Position numbers and translations under genes: made by a program. Positions 1,907-25,283 of a DNA stretch of 26,814 nt are shown piece by piece (the first letter of the stretch is position 1; every line of letters starts with the position of its first letter). The notes below the pieces were generated by a model. The model was not told the origin of the DNA. It was given only the letters and a program-made list of their open reading frames with translations, and did no database searches. Source of the stretch: a virus; IMG/VR virus record IMGVR_UViG_3300042291_000991, positions 1 through 26,814 of that record; one strand, written 5' to 3'.

Positions 1907-3049
1907 ATGAAAGATAAAAAATATTTTTGTTACGAAATTTACAAAAATCTTGCCATAGCGTCTGATCCATCCGGAAAGGTGGGATACAGTCCTTGCTCTT
2001 ACTATCGAGGTTTTATTAAAGTTTCAGACGATATTGATATTTCTAAAATTTGGAACAGCCAGGAACATGTAGCGTTAAAACAATCAGTAGAAAATGATCA
2101 GCCAATACCTGGTTGTGCCAGCTGTTATCAAGAAGAAGCTGCTGGCTTAAAAAGCAGAAGGATGGGCTCAAAAGAATTTTATGAGATTTTTCAAAACAAT
2201 ACCGATATCGACATTTCAGGTCCTCAGGGATTGGATTATAGGGTGGGTAATTTGTGTAATCTTAAATGTGTTATATGTGGCCCTAGTAATAGCACGTCGT
2301 GGATTCCGGACTACTCACGCATATACCCAGACCGATCAGTAGAGATTTTTAAGCATCGAAAAAACGAACAGATTTTTTTATCCGATCCCAAAGTAGTTGA
2401 AAATATTAATATTGTGCATTTACACGGTGGTGGTGAACCGCTAATGAGCAATGCCCATATAAAGTTACTAGAACTAATACGCGATACAAAAGGATTATCG
2501 GATGTACGTATCTTATACAATACCAATGGCACGATCAGGGCTAGTGATCAGGTACTTGAATTATTGAGTCAATGCCGGTTAATAGAATTGTATTTTAGTA
2601 TAGACGATGTTGGATCAAGATTTGAATACCAACGCACTGGTGCTAAATGGACAGAGATAGAAGATAATATTTCTTGGTACAAACAGAAAATGCCGCACAA
2701 TCATATGTTTAACATCAATTGCACATGGGGATATTTGAATTTTTATTATCTGCCGGACTTAGTAGATTGGTATAATAAAAACTTTTCTACTAATAGATAT
2801 GGGGATCCAGTTAACCTTATCTTTCAAAAGGCCCTGGGGCAATTTTGTTTATCTTACATATCATCAACTATGTTACAAATGTTTAAAAAAAGATTTGCCA
2901 ATTATCCGACCCTACTGCCTTTGCTATATTCATTGAGTATAGATAACAGTAAGGATCATTCTGAATTTTGGAATTCCATACAAAATATCGATAAGATAAG
3001 AAAACAAGATTTTAAAAATCTTCACTCTGAATGGAGTCAATTACTATGA
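1907..3049 (+). CDS. Radical SAM enzyme with N-terminal twitch/SPASM-like cysteine region
   Basis: The 380-residue protein carries the radical SAM signature CNLKCVIC (CX3CX2C, C117, C121, C124), which ligates the [4Fe-4S] cluster that cleaves S-adenosylmethionine, and a GGEP motif at 175-178 that contacts SAM. Before the barrel are further cysteines (C30, C70, C73 in a CASCYQEE context), like the N-terminal twitch-type auxiliary cluster domain seen in a subfamily of radical SAM proteins. The substrate cannot be told; related proteins modify peptides or small molecules. The stop overlaps the next gene's start (ATGA), so the two probably act together. Base composition is clearly richer in A and T than the helicase, hinting at separate origin. 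It is a likely client for the IscU and IscA encoded downstream. Confidence 0.85.
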   Translation: MKDKKYFCYEIYKNLAIASDPSGKVGYSPCSYYRGFIKVSDDIDISKIWNSQEHVALKQSVENDQPIPGCASCYQEEAAGLKSRRMGSKEFYEIFQNNTDIDISGPQGLDYRVGNLCNLKCVICGPSNSTSWIPDYSRIYPDRSVEIFKHRKNEQIFLSDPKVVENINIVHLHGGGEPLMSNAHIKLLELIRDTKGLSDVRILYNTNGTIRASDQVLELLSQCRLIELYFSIDDVGSRFEYQRTGAKWTEIEDNISWYKQKMPHNHMFNINCTWGYLNFYYLPDLVDWYNKNFSTNRYGDPVNLIFQKALGQFCLSYISSTMLQMFKKRFANYPTLLPLLYSLSIDNSKDHSEFWNSIQNIDKIRKQDFKNLHSEWSQLL

Positions 3050-3594: not shown

Positions 3595-3602
3595 AATAAA
3601 TA
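3595..3602 (+). promoter_or_regulatory. Candidate T4-type late promoter (AATAAATA)
   Basis: The octamer differs from the T4 late consensus TATAAATA at one position and is followed by C, as at 15385. It lies 18 bases before the start of the 85-residue gene. A second near-match, TCTAAATA, sits at 3579-3586. The sequence is AT-rich, so chance is possible. Confidence 0.4.
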
Positions 3603-3620
3603 CTCAAAGAGATTATTTTT

Positions 3621-3878
3621 ATGCAAAAACATACACGCAGTATCTTGGAAGAACTAGATACGATCTATCAAGATCGCTTTCAGGATCGAGACCGCCGCTA
3701 CATTGTAGAAAGTCGTGCCACTAATGTGATTGCCAGCGCCATTAGATTAATCGAACAGATTGAATCTGCTTATCCTCCGGATCAAGCAGATAATTTAGTA
3801 AGAAAACTTTTGAATGCAATTCGTGACAAAGATCCTAAAAAATTTACAAGAACCGTGAGAAGAACTGATGCAGATTAA
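3621..3878 (+). CDS. Small conserved-looking phage protein, 85 residues, unknown function
   Basis: A highly charged, probably all-helical protein. Its first half is rich in Asp and Arg (IYQDRFQDRDRRYI) and it ends in a basic stretch before RRTDAD. There is no signal peptide or membrane segment. It follows a candidate late promoter and its 3' end overlaps the start of the 633-residue gene by 11 bases, so the two are probably co-translated and may work as a pair. The open frame, the fit between neighbours and the codon use support a real gene. I do not recognise a named family. Confidence 0.65.
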   Translation: MQKHTRSILEELDTIYQDRFQDRDRRYIVESRATNVIASAIRLIEQIESAYPPDQADNLVRKLLNAIRDKDPKKFTRTVRRTDAD

Positions 3879-5769
3879 CGAAGGCGGTAATGTATTCAAA
3901 GATACAGCCGGTAATCCACTCACCCAGCGTATTGCTCAAGCTGATGTCATGCCCACTGCTCAATGGCTAGAGAAGATTACTGGCCTTGACCTCACTAAAG
4001 ACAAAGACAAGCGTGATGGCAAGCCAATTCGATGGCTAGGATCGACTGGCCGCAAGGCTGATTCAGGCGATCTAGACATGAGTGTTGATGCTGGCGAAAT
4101 GACAAAAGATCAGTTGGTCGCAGTGTTAGCACAATGGGCCAAGAGTAAAGGTGTGGATCCTGCCAAATACATCAAAAAATCAGGCTCTGCTGTGCACTTT
4201 TTTACTGCCATCAATGGCGACCCTAAGAATGGATTTGTACAAACAGACTTTATGTTTAGTAATAAACCAAGATGGACACAATTTGTATTAAGCAGCGATC
4301 CTCGTAGCAAATATAAAGGTGCACTGCGCAACATCATGATGAACAGTATGGCCAAGGCCTTGGGATACAAGTTGAATCAAAACGACGGTATTATGGATCG
4401 TGCTACCAATGAGTTGATCACAGACGATCCTGCTCAGGTAGCTCAAATGCTACTAAATCCCAATGCCACAGTGGCTGATCTTTACAGCGTAGAAGCCATC
4501 CTAAAATCATTGGAAGCAGACCCAAAACGTGCTACCAAGATTGCCGACTTTAAAGCACACATGGATCGCGAAGGCATACAGTTCGACGAAGGCATCTACG
4601 AAACAACAGAACTCTACACTGAATATAACGAAGTCAGCATCATGGCCCGTTTACGTGATCGCATTGTAAATCAAGGTATGCAGGTCATTGTGGAAGGTGT
4701 GCGTATTGAGCACCCCGAGGACATGATATTTGATCAGCGTCCCAGTGCTGGTCTCAAGCAAGCACTAGATGGCATCGTAGCTGCTGCTCGGAATCCTAGT
4801 GAGACCACAGTTAAATGGGACGGAAAACCAGCCATTATATTTGGCCGTAAACCCAACGGGGAATTTGTGCTGACTGATAAGTCGGGATTTGGTGCCAAAG
4901 GCTATGATGGATTGGCTACCAACCCAGAACAGATTGCTAAAATTATGAATATGCGTGGTGGCGAGCGTGGCGAACTTATTGCTCTTTATCAACGATTGTT
5001 TCCTATGCTGCGTCGTGCAGTACCCGAAGACTTTCGCGGCTATGTTCAAGGCGACTTGTTGTACAGTGAAGCACCTGCGTTGAAGGGTGATAATTATGTA
5101 TTCACACCCAATACTGTAACATATACAGTGCCGGCCAACACAGACCTGGGCCAAAAAATTTCACAAAGCACTGCAGCAGTGGCTATTCATACTGCATTGT
5201 CGGCTCCGGGTGCAGCACCTACACCTATACGTGCTGCTGCTTTAGAACCCAGTCCGGGACTGTTGATTTTGGATCCCAGTTTGAAAGAACCACGTGAGAT
5301 CAAGTTAAACGCTGCCACTGTTAAAGATGCTACCAGTCTGCTCACACAGTACGGTGCAGCAATGGATCGTTTGTTTAATCCCGCTGAACTGCGAGCACGT
5401 AAGATCAGCGATTTTCCTATCTTGATTAAAACCTACATCAACAGCCGTGTTCGCGGTGGCAGCTATGACAACTTGATCGGCGGATTTGGCGATTGGGTCA
5501 AACAAAAAGCACCAGCAAAAGCACCACGCATATTTGAATGGGCTACTGAAAACAAGCAGGCAGTGGCAGCACTATTTCAAGCATTCTTAGAAATATCCAG
5601 CCTTAAGAATCAAGTGGTCCGTCAGTTAGATGCACAAGCACACGATGTACAGGCCAGCATCAACAACGAACCTGGACACGAAGGCTATGTGGGCAACGGT
5701 ATGAAGTTTGTGGATCGCATGCGTTTTAGTGCTGCAAACTTTGCCAAAAATAATCCTGAATTAGGATAG
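3868..5769 (+). CDS. Large phage protein: pol-beta-type nucleotidyltransferase domain plus KxDG ligase-like domain
   Basis: A 633-residue protein. Residues 58-70 read GSTGRKADSGDLD, the GS...DxD signature of the pol-beta nucleotidyltransferase superfamily, and VQTDFMF supplies the third acidic residue at D127. After a helical linker (about 180-300) comes TVKWDGKPAIIFGR with K316-W-D-G319, which matches motif I of the DNA/RNA ligase and capping-enzyme superfamily, where the lysine becomes nucleotidylated. GYVQGDLLYSE further on could be motif III. I find no clear motif IV or V. Similar large proteins occur in marine T4-like phages as uncharacterised products (recalled, not searched). A role in RNA or DNA end repair is inference; a structural or head-associated role cannot be excluded. 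The start was chosen at 3868, overlapping the upstream gene by 11 bases. Confidence 0.6.
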   Translation: MQINEGGNVFKDTAGNPLTQRIAQADVMPTAQWLEKITGLDLTKDKDKRDGKPIRWLGSTGRKADSGDLDMSVDAGEMTKDQLVAVLAQWAKSKGVDPAKYIKKSGSAVHFFTAINGDPKNGFVQTDFMFSNKPRWTQFVLSSDPRSKYKGALRNIMMNSMAKALGYKLNQNDGIMDRATNELITDDPAQVAQMLLNPNATVADLYSVEAILKSLEADPKRATKIADFKAHMDREGIQFDEGIYETTELYTEYNEVSIMARLRDRIVNQGMQVIVEGVRIEHPEDMIFDQRPSAGLKQALDGIVAAARNPSETTVKWDGKPAIIFGRKPNGEFVLTDKSGFGAKGYDGLATNPEQIAKIMNMRGGERGELIALYQRLFPMLRRAVPEDFRGYVQGDLLYSEAPALKGDNYVFTPNTVTYTVPANTDLGQKISQSTAAVAIHTALSAPGAAPTPIRAAALEPSPGLLILDPSLKEPREIKLNAATVKDATSLLTQYGAAMDRLFNPAELRARKISDFPILIKTYINSRVRGGSYDNLIGGFGDWVKQKAPAKAPRIFEWATENKQAVAALFQAFLEISSLKNQVVRQLDAQAHDVQASINNEPGHEGYVGNGMKFVDRMRFSAANFAKNNPELG

Positions 5770-5794: not shown

Positions 5795-5802
5795 TATAAA
5801 TA
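5795..5802 (+). promoter_or_regulatory. T4-type late promoter TATAAATA
   Basis: Exact match to the T4 late-promoter octamer, read by host polymerase with the phage gp55-type sigma factor. It lies 43 bases before the start of the 155-residue putative virion gene, leaving a leader of about 38 bases that contains a strong AAGGAG ribosome site at 5833-5838. It is the best late-promoter match in the window. Confidence 0.75.
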
Positions 5803-5845: not shown

Positions 5846-6313
5846 ATGGCATTTTTTCCACCAGCAAATGGCGATGCACAACCGGTATTCGCATTAGACT
5901 TAGCAAACGGCCCACAACAAGGCCAAATCTCTTCAGCTGCACTAGTGCAGATGGCAGGTCCAAAACTGGACTTCTTCAGCGTTGTAGTTCAGAACGGTTC
6001 ACAACAGAACATTGACTTGCAAAACCAGTTGGGTAACGTAACATCAGGCGTTTTCACACCAGGTGTTGTTGTTCAACTAAATCAAAGCATTCAAGAGACA
6101 GCCACCATTGCCATGTACCAGGTTGAAGCTGCTTCATCTGGTCTGATCAGCTACGCTGTATATCCAAGTGGTGCTTACACTGCTGCCACTCTGCAAGCTC
6201 AACTGCGTGCCTTGGGCAACATTCAGATCACAGCCAGCGATGGTACAGTGACTGGTGTCAACGTTACAGGTACAGACGTTGTAAACGTAGGTTTCAAACT
6301 AGCTACCAGCTAA
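5846..6313 (+). CDS. Putative virion (head decoration or other abundant structural) protein
   Basis: A 155-residue protein rich in Gln, Asn, Ala, Val and Gly, with no cysteine and alternating hydrophobic residues suggestive of a beta-sandwich. It has no signal peptide or membrane segment. It forms its own transcription unit: an exact late octamer upstream, a strong AAGGAG site eight bases before the ATG, and a rho-independent terminator immediately downstream. Such an arrangement fits a highly expressed late structural protein. Which virion part it belongs to cannot be read from sequence; a capsid decoration protein is the best guess. Confidence 0.6.
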   Translation: MAFFPPANGDAQPVFALDLANGPQQGQISSAALVQMAGPKLDFFSVVVQNGSQQNIDLQNQLGNVTSGVFTPGVVVQLNQSIQETATIAMYQVEAASSGLISYAVYPSGAYTAATLQAQLRALGNIQITASDGTVTGVNVTGTDVVNVGFKLATS

Positions 6314-10902: not shown

Positions 10903-11277
10903 ATGGCATATTCAGACAAAGTATTAGATCATTACGAAAATCCTCGCAACGTAGGATCATTTGAAAAAGGTGACGACGACGTAGGCACAGGAATGGTAGG
11001 TGCACCCGCATGCGGTGATGTAATGAAACTACAAATCAAAGTCCTGGACGGAATTATTACAGATGCACGATTCAAAACATACGGCTGCGGCTCGGCCATT
11101 GCCAGTTCGTCATTGGTTACTGAATGGGTCAAAGGGCGAACTCTTGACGAAGCAGCGACAATTAGAAATACTGAAATCGCTCAAGAACTCGCACTCCCGC
11201 CGGTTAAGATACATTGCAGCATCCTTGCAGAAGATGCTATCCGAGCAGCCATAGCAGACTACAGAAACAAACATTAA
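10903..11277 (+). CDS. iscU: Iron-sulfur cluster assembly scaffold IscU
   Basis: A full-length, 124-residue IscU. The cluster ligands and helpers are all present: C37 and D39 in GAPACGDVMKL, C62 in TYGCGSAIASSS, H104 and C105 in KIHCSILAEDA. The LPPVK motif at 98-102, which binds the HscA chaperone in bacteria, is intact. The protein is nearly collinear with E. coli IscU as I remember it, with one residue missing near position 48. IscU receives sulfur from IscS and iron and builds [2Fe-2S] clusters, then passes them to carriers such as IscA. No IscS, HscA, HscB or ferredoxin is in the window, so host partners must be used. It sits nine bases after the secreted-protein gene, under the same sigma70 promoter, and its stop overlaps the SGNH gene start (TAATG). 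Very unusual cargo for a tailed phage. Confidence 0.96.
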   Translation: MAYSDKVLDHYENPRNVGSFEKGDDDVGTGMVGAPACGDVMKLQIKVLDGIITDARFKTYGCGSAIASSSLVTEWVKGRTLDEAATIRNTEIAQELALPPVKIHCSILAEDAIRAAIADYRNKH

Positions 11278-13340: not shown

Positions 13341-14147
13341 ATGGCAAAACGTATTTTAATCATGGGCCTGCCCGGTTCTGGTAAAACAACAATGGCGACA
13401 GCACTTAAAAATCACATTGAAGACATCAAACATGAAGGTTATGGAATCACAGTCGAGTGGTTCAATGCCGACGAGATTAGAAAAAAATTCAACGATTGGG
13501 ACTTTAGTGAAGCAGGTCGCATTCGTCAGAGTCTGCGTATGGATGATTTGGCTGCAAAATCCATAGCAGACTATGTAATCTGCGACTTTGTGGCACCATT
13601 GGTAGAAATGCGTAACAATTTCAAAGCTGATTGGACCATTTGGATGGATACAATTGAAAAAGGACGTTATGAGGATACCAATAAAGCATTTGTAGCTCCT
13701 ACATTATATGACTTTCGCATCACAGAACAAGATGCTGCCAAGTGGTCGGTGTTTGTAGCCGATCATATTTTAGCTGATCAACGCCGTCCTGTGTTTGACT
13801 GGCGTAAGGAAACAGTGCAAATGTTGGGTCGGTGGCAACCATGGCATACTGGACATCGTGCCTTGTTTGAGCGTTTGTTGCAGCGTACAGGACAAGTTAT
13901 TATTCAAATCCGCGATGTGCAAGGTTGGCAAGGCAGCAATCCATTTGGTCTAGAGGAAGTTAAAGAATTCATACGTAGAGATCTAGATCCGTTGTACCAA
14001 GGCCAATATGATATTCAAATTGTACCCAACATTGTACACATTGGCTGGGGGCGTGGCGTGGGATACACATCAGGTGAAGAGACATTTGACGAATCGATTA
14101 CCAAGATTTCCGGTACTGATATCCGTCGACAGATGGGCTTAAAATGA
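13341..14147 (+). CDS. Fusion of an APS-kinase-like domain with an HxGH nucleotidyltransferase domain
   Basis: A 268-residue two-domain protein. Residues 1-150 resemble adenylylsulfate kinase (CysC): Walker A GLPGSGKTT (9-17), then WFNADEIRKKFNDWDFSEAGRIRQSLR, matching the CysC DGDNxR and FSDADRxENIRR blocks, and VAPTLYDF late in the domain. Residues 158-268 carry GRWQPWHTGH (163-172) and ISGTDIRR (256-263), the HxGH and ISGTxIR motifs of the NMN/pantetheine/ATP-sulfurylase nucleotidyltransferase superfamily; the GRxQPxHxGH form is closest to NMN adenylyltransferases. It could make PAPS, in which case it would feed the sulfotransferase-like proteins, or act on a nucleotide cofactor or sugar phosphate. 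It is the first gene of a coupled run (ATGA overlap with the next gene). Domain calls are solid; the reaction is not. Confidence 0.8.
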   Translation: MAKRILIMGLPGSGKTTMATALKNHIEDIKHEGYGITVEWFNADEIRKKFNDWDFSEAGRIRQSLRMDDLAAKSIADYVICDFVAPLVEMRNNFKADWTIWMDTIEKGRYEDTNKAFVAPTLYDFRITEQDAAKWSVFVADHILADQRRPVFDWRKETVQMLGRWQPWHTGHRALFERLLQRTGQVIIQIRDVQGWQGSNPFGLEEVKEFIRRDLDPLYQGQYDIQIVPNIVHIGWGRGVGYTSGEETFDESITKISGTDIRRQMGLK

Positions 14148-14356
14148 ATAAGTACTATATAAGATATAACACCAAACATGGAGAAGGTGATCTAGTATGG
14201 CGTGTCTTTGAAAACGGATCAGAATTTTTGGTACGCAATATTGACATTCGAGTTCCAGTGTTGGGTGAGTCTACCACGGAAGGTGATGTTGTAAAATGGA
14301 ATATCGCCTGTAATGGTAGTATGGACATAATCGACGGAGTCGCAATAATATCATGA
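14144..14356 (+). CDS. Small phage protein, 70 residues, unknown
   Basis: It is joined to both neighbours by ATGA overlaps, between the kinase fusion and iscA, so it is certainly translated with them. The sequence begins MNKYYIRYNTKHGEG and looks like a compact beta fold (DLVWRVFENGSEFLVRNIDI). The WNIACNGSMDIIDG segment has one cysteine, too few to ligate a metal alone. No known motif. Similar short proteins appear in replication or metabolism segments of T4-like marine phages. Confidence 0.7.
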   Translation: MNKYYIRYNTKHGEGDLVWRVFENGSEFLVRNIDIRVPVLGESTTEGDVVKWNIACNGSMDIIDGVAIIS

Positions 14357-14679
14357 TTACCATAACTGAAACAGCAGCAAAGAAGATTGTCAGCAATATA
14401 GCCCGACGTGGGCAGGGAGTGGGCATTAAGGTGGGGGTAAAGACCACTGGCTGTTCTGGTCTTGCGTATGTGTTAGAATATCTGGACGAAGCACCATGCA
14501 CATGGGACTGGACAGAGCACGAAAAAGACGGAGCCAGAGTTTGGATAAATGCCAAGGATCTAGCATACATCGACGGACTCGAAATTGATTATGTCCGTAA
14601 AGGTCTTAACGAAGGCTTTGATTTTATCAATCCCAAGGAAGCAGCCCGTTGCGGTTGCGGAGAAAGCTTTACAATCTAA
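14353..14679 (+). CDS. iscA: A-type iron-sulfur carrier IscA
   Basis: A 108-residue A-type carrier with the three cluster cysteines in place: C34 in TTGCSGLAYVLEY and C100, C102 in the C-terminal RCGCGESF. The GLNEGFDFINP block before them matches IscA (and SufA) better than ErpA. An extra cysteine at C49 is outside the usual set. A-type carriers accept clusters from IscU and hand them to apo-proteins. The gene is about 3 kb from the phage iscU, in a different operon (kinase fusion, 70-residue gene, iscA, nuclease) under the 13292 promoter. It starts by ATGA overlap and ends in a TAATG overlap with the nuclease. Confidence in the A-type family is very high; IscA versus SufA is the main uncertainty. 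Confidence 0.92.
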   Translation: MITITETAAKKIVSNIARRGQGVGIKVGVKTTGCSGLAYVLEYLDEAPCTWDWTEHEKDGARVWINAKDLAYIDGLEIDYVRKGLNEGFDFINPKEAARCGCGESFTI

Positions 14680-24214: not shown

Positions 24215-24243
24215 AAAGTACAAACTGCAAAAAAATTTGCCAA
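24215..24243 (-). promoter_or_regulatory. Weak candidate promoter for the methyltransferase
   Basis: On the minus strand TTGGCA (24243-24238), 17 bases, TACTTT (24220-24215). The -35 overlaps the -35 of the divergent TctC promoter, so the two could interfere. The -10 is poor. Confidence 0.35.
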
Positions 24244-24265
24244 TTTGTGTAATATCAACTATATA
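24237..24265 (+). promoter_or_regulatory. Candidate sigma70-type promoter for the TctC operon
   Basis: TTGCCA (24237-24242), 17-base spacer, TATATA (24260-24265). The start would be near 24272, followed by AAGGA (24282-24286) and the ATG at 24294. Confidence 0.6.
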
Positions 24266-24293
24266 TATCATTAATCTCGCAAAGGAAATAATA

Positions 24294-25283
24294 ATGAAAC
24301 GTTTTATCACCGCAATTGTGTTGGCTGCAATGGCCACTGCTGCCGTCCCTGCACAAGCATGGGAGCCAACAAAACCAGTCACTGTAATAGTAGGAAACAC
24401 TCCGGGTGCTGGTAACGAAATTGCATTTAGAAAACTAGCAGAAATTGTACAACGTACAAATCCCAAGTTTATATTTGTTGTGCAGAACATTCCAGGTGCA
24501 GACAGTGTGGTTGCACAAAACAGATTCTTAGATGCAGCCCCAGATGGATACACTGTCAATTTACCCAGTCACATGAGTACCTATGTCACCAATGACATAT
24601 GGCAAAAAGACATTAAAAAATTCAACTATGATTCTTTTACAGATGTGCTGACTATGGGTAAAAGTCCCTTGGTATTGGTTGCTAGTCCAAAAAGCATGAT
24701 CAATACTCCGGAAGACTTTATAACATTGATTGCTAAAACTAATAAACCAGTTAATATAGCAACAGGTGGTGGAGCCCACAGAACTGCATTTGAATACCTG
24801 ATGTTCCGCGGACAAGGTAACAAGGATCTTGTGAAACCCATTAGATTCAATGGTCCTATGCCAGCTGTTACTAGTGTGGCCACATTTGATCTCAAAGGTG
24901 GTACAGAATTTGGAATCATGCCTATTGCTGTAGCTAAACCCTTGATCGACGCTGGCAAAGTAAAGGCCATTGGATTTACTGGCACAAGAAAAATGGAACA
25001 ATATCCCAAGGTACCTCTGTTGAACACTGTTGCCCCAGGCATCAATGTATACGCAGCTTGGTCACTGCAATTGCCCCCAAAAACTCCTGCAGATATTGTC
25101 AAATGGTATCAACAAGAATTTTCTAAAGCAGTGTTATCTAAAGAATACACAGAATGGGCCAACAATCAGGTTGTGTTTATTGAGGAAGCAGAACTTGTAC
25201 CTGCAGGCCTACGTCAACACATGAATGATCTTAGGTCTACATTTTTGCCAGTACTCCAGACAATTGATTTAAGTAAAGAATGA
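24294..25283 (+). CDS. TctC/Bug-type periplasmic solute-binding protein of a tripartite tricarboxylate-type transporter
   Basis: The 329-residue protein, from the ATG at 24294 with AAGGA ahead, begins with a Sec signal peptide (MKRFITAIVLAAMATAAVPAQA, cleaved before WEP). The mature part has the family blocks KPVTVIVGNTPGAGNE, IPGADSVVAQNRFLDAAPDGYTV and the later TGGGAHRTAFEYL ligand-binding loop. Such proteins bind organic acids such as citrate, or amino-acid-like ligands, in the periplasm and pass them to TctA and TctB, which are absent here; it must use host membrane partners or act by sequestering a ligand. The family is abundant in betaproteobacteria, so it is probably captured from the host. 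It leads a coupled operon (ATGA overlap with the next gene). It is not a usual phage gene. Confidence 0.9.
   Translation: MKRFITAIVLAAMATAAVPAQAWEPTKPVTVIVGNTPGAGNEIAFRKLAEIVQRTNPKFIFVVQNIPGADSVVAQNRFLDAAPDGYTVNLPSHMSTYVTNDIWQKDIKKFNYDSFTDVLTMGKSPLVLVASPKSMINTPEDFITLIAKTNKPVNIATGGGAHRTAFEYLMFRGQGNKDLVKPIRFNGPMPAVTSVATFDLKGGTEFGIMPIAVAKPLIDAGKVKAIGFTGTRKMEQYPKVPLLNTVAPGINVYAAWSLQLPPKTPADIVKWYQQEFSKAVLSKEYTEWANNQVVFIEEAELVPAGLRQHMNDLRSTFLPVLQTIDLSKE

What the first reader, a model, noticed from the sequence alone, without database searches (positions are those of the whole stretch)
3868..5769. One 633-residue protein joins a pol-beta-type nucleotidyltransferase to a KxDG ligase-like domain
GS(58-59)...D68xD70...D127 is the nucleotidyltransferase set; K316-W-D-G319 is ligase/capping motif I. 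The two reactions in one chain suggest nucleic-acid end processing (add a nucleotide, then seal), possibly RNA repair. Motifs IV and V are not seen, so the second domain might be diverged.
Basis: partly seen in the sequence, partly recalled or inferred. Interest (0 to 1): 0.7.

Follow-up and report, generated by a model that had tools for sequence, protein, structure and literature searches.

The report
Fused nucleotidyltransferase and RNA-ligase-like phage enzyme
A large aquatic bacterial virus carries one late-made protein that joins a polymerase-beta-type nucleotide-adding domain to a diverged RNA-ligase-type domain (Pfam DUF6267, 'unknown function'); relatives carry the two as neighbouring genes among virion-protein genes, so it is probably an end-repair enzyme that may travel in the virus particle.

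Summary
Window 3868-5769 encodes 633 aa with a pol-beta-superfamily nucleotidyltransferase (NTase) at the N terminus and KWDG at 316-319. Both active sites are invariant in 44 representatives under 85% identical. They are present: III-like G391..D396 plus P414-N415, IV E605-G-Y-V608, V K613-x-V-x-R617, with about 110 mostly helical residues inserted between IIIa and IV. The C-terminal half is Pfam DUF6267, found without the NTase in more than 400 cyanophage records. Structure search puts the NTase on polymerases mu/lambda/beta. It puts DUF6267, weakly, on polynucleotide ligases and on the ligase-like proteins of jumbo phages PA5oct and Atu_ph07. In four jumbo phages a separate NTase gene lies beside or near a separate ligase-like gene, in the same place after the replicative helicase. 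The PA5oct NTase is annotated as seen in virions. The operon has a T4-type late promoter in 33 of 36 relatives. Close relatives also encode an ordinary DNA ligase but no recognised Rnl1, Rnl2 or RlaP. Best reading: a late, probably packaged, bifunctional end-healing and sealing enzyme, more RNA-ligase-like than DNA-ligase-like. Substrate and activity are untested. DUF6267 itself was not reported in two cyanophage virion proteomes.

The parts
3595..3603 (+). T4-type late-promoter element AATAAATAC, 18 nt before the leader gene
   Evidence: NATAAATA lies within 80 nt upstream of this leader gene in 33 of 36 relatives; shuffled expectation 1.9; 0 of 12 upstream of the helicase gene; 0 of 44 directly upstream of the NTase-ligase ORF
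3621..3878 (+). 85-aa leader gene, homologue of PA5oct gp259 ('virion structural protein'); its last 11 nt overlap the start of the NTase-ligase ORF
   Evidence: phrog_11854 'virion structural protein' E 2.6e-13; tblastn to PA5oct, Phosso and others; upstream of the enzyme gene in 37 of 43 relatives with enough sequence
3868..5769 (+). 633-aa NTase-ligase fusion protein
   Evidence: the full-length fusion was extracted from 131 viral-contig loci
3868..4572 (+). N-terminal pol-beta-superfamily nucleotidyltransferase domain (residues 1-235)
   Evidence: AF2 pLDDT about 90 over most of it; Foldseek best hits pol mu/lambda/beta; homologous to separate genes of Phosso, Atu_ph07, PA5oct, HMM E 8e-33 / 4e-26 / 1e-18
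4039..4077 (+). NTase motif G58-S59 ... S66-G67-D68-x-D70
   Evidence: 44 of 44 representatives
4246..4248 (+). third catalytic Asp, D127
   Evidence: 44 of 44
4591..4701 (+). predicted flexible linker (residues 242-278)
   Evidence: pLDDT below 50
4705..5748 (+). DUF6267 domain (residues 280-627), ligase-like
   Evidence: Pfam PF19782 E 1.1e-39, above cut-off; AF2 pLDDT 87, pTM 0.80
4813..4824 (+). motif I, K316-W-D-G319 (putative nucleotidylated lysine)
   Evidence: 44 of 44; invariant also in the cyanophage-type DUF6267 proteins of alignment A3
5038..5124 (+). motif III equivalent G391-x3-(G/A)-D396 followed by P414-N415-x-V-x-Y419; jumbo-phage ligases have PN(T/S/V)(V/I)xY here
5188..5193 (+). 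motif IIIa-position H441-T442
   Evidence: H 44 of 44, T 40 of 44
5311..5637 (+). mostly helical insertion between motifs IIIa and IV (residues 482-590)
   Evidence: secondary structure of AF2 model
5680..5691 (+). motif IV, E605-G-Y-V608
   Evidence: E, G, V 44 of 44
5704..5718 (+). motif V, K613-x-V-x-R617
   Evidence: K, V, R 44 of 44

Best explanation
The protein is a bifunctional nucleic-acid end-healing and sealing enzyme. Inferred mechanism: (1) the N-terminal pol-beta-type NTase adds one or a few nucleotides to a damaged or recessed 3' end, using the G58S59 / D68-D70-D127 metal site. (2) The C-terminal DUF6267 domain, a diverged covalent nucleotidyltransferase closest to the phage Rnl1-like RNA ligases, forms an enzyme-NMP on K316, activates a 5'-phosphate end and joins it to the 3'-OH. 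(3) The gene is transcribed late in an operon whose other genes have virion-protein homologues, so the enzyme is probably packaged and delivered with the DNA, to repair cut tRNA or other RNA (or nicked incoming DNA) before early genes are expressed. Shown here: the domain order, invariance of both active sites, fold assignment of the NTase, motif, profile and structure links of DUF6267 to ligases, linkage of the two domains as neighbouring genes elsewhere, and the late-promoter and virion-gene context. Inferred: catalysis, RNA as substrate, and packaging of this protein.
For: Both active sites invariant in 44 diverse representatives. NTase model matches family X polymerases. The ligase-domain model is good (pLDDT 87); in PDB the 16 best Foldseek hits are all polynucleotide ligases. 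In the viral library the first hits beyond DUF6267-like and DUF6267-cytidyltransferase proteins include PA5oct's 446-aa protein (E 1.7e-3, prob 1.00) and the Atu_ph07 protein named 'RNA ligase' (E 3e-3, prob 0.89), the same two that synteny pointed to. hhalign: DUF6267 against the jumbo ligase-like alignment P 2e-4, motif I on motif I; against PA5oct gp256 P 1.3e-4 over the motif IV-V region; jumbo ligase-like against Rnl1 P 1e-4; unrelated-protein and reversed controls P 0.017 or worse. The Atu_ph07 ligase spans Pfam RNA_ligase 3-169/171 at E 0.002, below the curated cut-off. NTase and ligase-like genes overlap in Phosso, Atu_ph07 and L177 and are 1.3 kb apart in PA5oct. PA5oct NTase gp253 and many neighbours carry ESI-MS/MS notes. 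Late promoter 33/36. An ordinary DNA ligase in 6 of 8 relatives' contigs argues against a housekeeping DNA-ligase role. The cytidylyltransferase that is next to DUF6267 in some cyanophages, and fused to it in others (phrog_455; S-PM2 591 aa), is a virion protein in S-SM1 (PMC3037559), S-SCSM1 (PMC9602691) and S-CREM2 (PMC10665884).
Against: No PDB Foldseek match of the ligase domain passes E 0.001 and TM-scores are low. Motif III has D instead of E, and motif V has K-x-V-x-R instead of K-x-K. The direct DUF6267-Rnl1 profile match is not significant (P 0.03). DUF6267 is absent from the S-CREM2 virion list (gp87) and from S-SCSM1's virion annotation (ORF257), and PA5oct's ligase-like gp256 has no MS note, so packaging of the ligase part has no direct support. 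No 5'-kinase or 3'-phosphatase partner was identified beside it.
Confidence: 0.55

Rival explanations
1. A DNA rather than RNA repair enzyme: a minimal family-X-like polymerase plus a sealing domain that fills gaps and closes nicks in the injected genome, comparable in logic to a viral pol X plus ligase pair; in cyanophages DUF6267 might replace the missing T4-type DNA ligase.
For: The NTase is structurally closest to gap-filling, end-joining polymerases mu and lambda. The locus sits beside the primase and replicative helicase. PF01068 DNA ligase was not found in P-RSM6, S-CAM9 or Melnitz.
Against: Six of 8 relatives' contigs carry an ordinary DNA ligase as well. DUF6267 ends about 16 residues after motif V, so there is no C-terminal OB fold or motif VI as in DNA ligases. 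The profile chain leads to Rnl1 through the jumbo proteins, not to T4 gp30.
Confidence: 0.2
2. A virion-delivered effector that nucleotidylates proteins, small molecules or a cap-like RNA end rather than joining two ends; the ligase-type domain may only form or transfer NMP.
For: Pol-beta NTases and covalent nucleotidyltransferases include such enzymes (general knowledge). The locus holds virion proteins and other nucleotide-transferring enzymes, such as the packaged NMNAT/cytidylyltransferase of cyanophages, and T4 packages the Alt ADP-ribosyltransferase (T4 record). Motifs III and V are atypical.
Against: Conserved co-occurrence of an NTase and a ligase-like protein in several phage groups fits joint action on ends better.
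Confidence: 0.15
3. A virion or assembly protein whose ligase-like fold has a mainly structural role, as T4 Rnl1 also promotes tail-fibre attachment.
For: T4 RnlA is annotated as a tail fibre attachment catalyst. S-CREM2 DUF6267 lies two genes after the long tail fibre gene. Late promoter and structural neighbourhood.
Against: Complete invariance of both catalytic sets argues for catalysis. DUF6267 not seen in two cyanophage virion proteomes.
Confidence: 0.07
4. The motifs are chance matches in an unrelated structural protein.
For: No known enzyme family is hit by sequence in Pfam or PDB.
Against: Fold searches, invariance, profile matches on the right motifs and independent synteny.
Confidence: 0.03

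Closest known systems
DUF6267 (Pfam PF19782; PHROG phrog_455)
   Same: The C-terminal half is a member (E 1e-39); the cyanophage-type homologues share the invariant KWDG, GDL, EG(Y/F)V and KxVxR.
   Different: Cyanophage members lack the N-terminal NTase; some are instead fused to a HIGH-type cytidylyltransferase.
Rnl1-type phage RNA ligases (T4 RnlA)
   Same: Motif I KxDG, EGYV at motif IV, lysine at motif V, P-x-N / PN pattern after motif III; linked by profile through the jumbo-phage proteins.
   Different: Not recognised by PF09511 or PF09414; motif III D not E; helical insertion before motif IV; chain ends soon after motif V; fused to an NTase.
RlaP plus RNA ligase repair pairs (Burroughs and Aravind; described in PMC7824862)
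   Same: A pol-beta NTase acting with an ATP-dependent RNA ligase is the predicted logic: restore lost nucleotides, then seal.
   Different: The NTase is not RlaP by Pfam and resembles family X polymerases; domains fused in one chain; late operon among virion genes rather than with tRNA repair genes.
NTase / ligase-like neighbouring genes of jumbo phages Phosso, Atu_ph07, PA5oct and contig L177
   Same: Same NTase family, a ligase-like neighbour, the same leader gene, and the same position after the replicative helicase.
   Different: Two genes instead of one fusion; three of the four genomes also have a separate Rnl1 and Rnl2 elsewhere.
Family X DNA polymerases (pol mu, lambda, beta)
   Same: Best structural matches of the NTase; similar GS...SGDxD signature (sequence comparison from memory).
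   Different: TM-scores 0.34-0.45 by target length; no Pfam PF14792 match in the window.

Membership tests
DUF6267 (PF19782) | Pfam match above curated cut-off | tested here: met
   137.4 bits against cut-off 27, residues 280-627
Covalent nucleotidyltransferase (ligase/capping) superfamily | Motif I KxDG on a strand, conserved | tested here: met
   K316WDG 44/44; K at strand end in model
Covalent nucleotidyltransferase (ligase/capping) superfamily | Motifs III, IV, V in order | tested here: met
   G391..D396, E605-G-x-V608, K613-x-V-x-R617, invariant; III and V are atypical
Covalent nucleotidyltransferase (ligase/capping) superfamily | Fold match to solved members | tested here: inconclusive
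   Best 16 PDB hits are all ligases but E 0.1-1, TM low; viral-library matches to ligase-like jumbo proteins E 2-3e-3
Covalent nucleotidyltransferase (ligase/capping) superfamily | Lysyl-NMP formation | not testable with these tools
   needs biochemistry
Rnl1 / RNA ligase (PF09511, PF09414) | Pfam recognition | tested here: not met
   only DUF6267 found for P0001 at E up to 1
Rnl1 / RNA ligase (PF09511, PF09414) | Profile-profile link | tested here: inconclusive
   direct P 0.03; indirect through jumbo proteins P 2e-4 and 1e-4
ATP-dependent DNA ligase (PF01068) / capping enzyme | Pfam recognition | tested here: not met
   PF01068 finds nothing in the window record
ATP-dependent DNA ligase (PF01068) / capping enzyme | C-terminal OB domain with motif VI | tested here: not met
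   protein ends 16 residues after R617; only a helix follows motif V
Pol-beta nucleotidyltransferase superfamily | G[GS]-x8-13-DxD plus third Asp on the sheet | tested here: met
   G58S59, D68, D70, D127 44/44; fold match prob 1.00
RlaP (PF10127) | Pfam recognition | tested here: not met
   no RlaP match in any of 15 NTase-domain sequences; none in relatives' contigs
DNA polymerase family X | PF14792 palm profile | tested here: not met
   no match in the window record; a single weak thumb hit, E 0.19, in one relative
Virion-packaged protein | Detected in purified particles | tested here: inconclusive
   PA5oct NTase homologue annotated ESI-MS/MS; DUF6267 not listed for S-CREM2 or S-SCSM1

The most novel reading that the evidence does not exclude
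Diverse large phages pack a pol-X-like NTase with an Rnl1-like sealing enzyme into the particle as a ready-made end-repair kit delivered at entry, and DUF6267, widespread in cyanophages, is the missing sealing enzyme of that system.
Probability: 0.3. Interest if true: 0.8.

Novelty: new variant of a known kind. Interest (0 to 1): 0.6.

Why it matters
It gives a testable enzymatic identity to DUF6267, a 'function unknown' family carried by hundreds of cyanophages, and shows it fused to a pol-beta nucleotidyltransferase in a large family of aquatic phages. NTase/RNA-ligase repair pairs were known as separate genes; here the pair is a single protein in a late operon whose other genes have virion-protein homologues. 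That raises the question of whether phages inject nucleic-acid repair enzymes with their genome, which proteomics and simple adenylylation assays can answer.

Tried and rejected
Sequence searches of PDB with the protein and with either domain profile found nothing meaningful. RlaP membership of the NTase: rejected by Pfam; a profile comparison with the one RlaP sequence recovered gave P 0.17, uninformative. Direct profile match of DUF6267 to T4 Rnl2, gp30 or single Rnl1: no signal. Bacterial or prophage homologues: none found. Looking for the NTase as a separate gene next to DUF6267 in Methylophilales phage Melnitz: the 361-aa upstream gene is unrelated; the upstream gene of S-CAM9 gave no match to the full-length family profile either. 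S-SCSM1 virion protein ORF90, next to the packaged NMNAT, was hoped to be DUF6267 but is another family; its DUF6267 is ORF257. A weak match of the 85-aa gene to a 'Ku-like' PHROG (E 0.002) was not pursued; it would suit an end-joining story but is too weak. The related-locus scan with the PA5oct NTase found no relatives.

Full report
What is there. The window is a 26.8-kb IMG/VR virus record from a large tailed phage with T4-like features (late-promoter motif, primase/helicase, ribonucleotide reductase genes). The C-terminal part, residues 280-627, is Pfam DUF6267 at E 1.1e-39, a family of unknown function; no other Pfam family is found. The N-terminal part has no Pfam family.

Is it more than chance? 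A scan with the protein found 127 relatives in viral contigs and a scan with an alignment found at least 575; none was found in bacterial or archaeal genomes. From the fetched loci I extracted 131 full-length fusions and reduced them to 44 representatives below 85% identity (mean pairwise identity 54%). G58, S59, S66, G67, D68, D70, D127, K316, W317, D318, G319, R327, G391, D396, P414, N415, H441, E605, G606, V608, K613, V615 and R617 are 44/44. Both active sites are therefore under full constraint.

Fold of the NTase. The AlphaFold2 model of the whole protein has mean pLDDT 83, with a disordered linker at 242-278. The 50 best Foldseek matches in PDB are all DNA polymerases mu, lambda or beta, probability 0.99-1.00, E 0.004-0.04, TM-score 0.34-0.45 by target length. 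The signature GSTGRKADSGDLD is of the pol beta type (comparison from memory). Sequence profiles do not recognise it as family X or as RlaP, so I file it only in the superfamily.

Fold of DUF6267. The domain alone gives a better model (pLDDT 87, pTM 0.80). The 16 best PDB matches are all DNA or RNA ligases, but none is significant on its own (E 0.1-1, TM-scores low). In the library of viral models the first hits are DUF6267-like proteins, including ones fused to cytidyltransferases (S-PM2, 591 aa). Further down, still ahead of ordinary RNA ligases, come PA5oct's 446-aa protein (E 1.7e-3, prob 1.00) and an Atu_ph07 protein named RNA ligase (E 3e-3, prob 0.89). Profile comparisons agree. DUF6267 against the jumbo-phage ligase-like proteins gives P 2e-4 with motif I aligned to motif I. 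Against PA5oct gp256 it gives P 1.3e-4 over the motif IV-V region. The jumbo proteins against Rnl1 ligases give P 1e-4 across motifs I-III. Unrelated T4 proteins and reversed alignments give P 0.017 or worse. The direct comparison DUF6267-Rnl1 is not significant (P 0.03). DUF6267 ends soon after motif V, without the OB domain of DNA ligases and capping enzymes. I conclude that it is a diverged ligase-superfamily domain, nearer to Rnl1-like RNA ligases than to DNA ligases.

Gene neighbourhood. Sinorhizobium phage Phosso, Agrobacterium phage Atu_ph07, Pseudomonas phage PA5oct and contig L177 carry the NTase as a separate gene (HMM E 8e-33, 4e-26 and 1e-18 for the first three; L177 by tblastn to Atu_ph07). 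It overlaps a ligase-like gene with KLDG/KIDG, PN(T/S/V)(V/I)xY and EG(V/F/Y)V motifs, or in PA5oct lies 1.3 kb from it. All have, just upstream and just after the replicative helicase, a homologue of the 85-aa leader gene at 3621-3878. Four jumbo phages with two genes and this family with one fused gene form a domain-fusion argument that the two domains act together. In the window family the leader gene lies upstream in 37 of 43 cases.

Late expression and the virion. A T4-type late promoter element NATAAATA lies within 80 nt upstream of the leader gene in 33 of 36 relatives (shuffled expectation 1.9), in 0 of 12 upstream of the helicase gene and in 0 of 44 directly upstream of the enzyme gene. 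In the window the leader ORF overlaps the enzyme ORF by 11 nt, so the enzyme is probably expressed from that late promoter. PA5oct gp253, the NTase homologue, and many neighbours are annotated as structural proteins seen by ESI-MS/MS. In some cyanophages DUF6267 is next to a cytidylyltransferase/NMNAT-like gene or fused to it (phrog_455). That enzyme is in the virions of S-SM1 (PMC3037559), S-SCSM1 (PMC9602691) and S-CREM2 (PMC10665884). Against packaging of the ligase part: PA5oct gp256 has no MS note, S-CREM2 gp87 (DUF6267) is not in its virion list, and S-SCSM1 ORF257 (DUF6267) is annotated hypothetical, not virion.

What else the phages encode. Six of eight relatives' contigs also encode an ordinary ATP-dependent DNA ligase (PF01068). 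None has RlaP or Rnl1; the two PF09414 hits among them overlap that DNA ligase gene. Three of the jumbo phages have separate Rnl1 and Rnl2 genes elsewhere, and Atu_ph07 also has RlaP, so the virion-locus pair is an extra, specialised set. The three cyanophage-type genomes tested had no PF01068 match, which leaves a DNA role there open.

Mechanism. Most likely the NTase restores nucleotides at a 3' end and DUF6267 seals the ends through a lysyl-NMP on K316. This is the logic proposed for RlaP with RNA ligases (PMC7824862), but with a different NTase family, in one polypeptide and in a late operon beside virion genes. Catalysis, substrate and packaging remain to be shown.

Noticed in passing
window 3595-3603 and 5795-5802: T4-type late promoter motifs; exact TATAAATA before the 155-aa gene at 5846; NATAAATA in 21 of 31 relatives before the 7508 gene and in 10 of 28 before the 5846 gene.
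   Followed up: partly
window 13341-14147: P-loop kinase joined to a weakly matching cytidylyltransferase-like (HIGH) domain, NadR-like (phrog_10255 E 3e-43; PF01583, weak PF01467); a possible NAD enzyme in the same window.
   Followed up: no
window 10903-11277 and 14353-14679: Phage-encoded iron-sulphur assembly proteins: NifU_N/IscU-like (E 8e-52) and IscA/HesB-like (E 9e-14).
   Followed up: no
window 24237-25283: TctC-type solute-binding receptor (E 1e-21), unusual in a phage genome.
   Followed up: no
window 1907-3049: Radical SAM protein (E 5e-9) directly after the helicase gene.
   Followed up: no
L093 8643-12393 (Atu_ph07): Run of related ~250-aa genes (shared YRG...FCTG-like motifs) starting three genes after the NTase; possibly packaged effectors.
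   Followed up: no
L282 42459-43793 (S-SCSM1 ORF90): Virion protein of phrog_1462 with a W(S/N)PADI motif also seen in unannotated genes just upstream of DUF6267 in S-SSM2 and S-RIM8.
   Followed up: partly
L078 / record G005: The fusion gene is split into two overlapping frames at about residue 372, a frameshift or assembly error.
   Followed up: no
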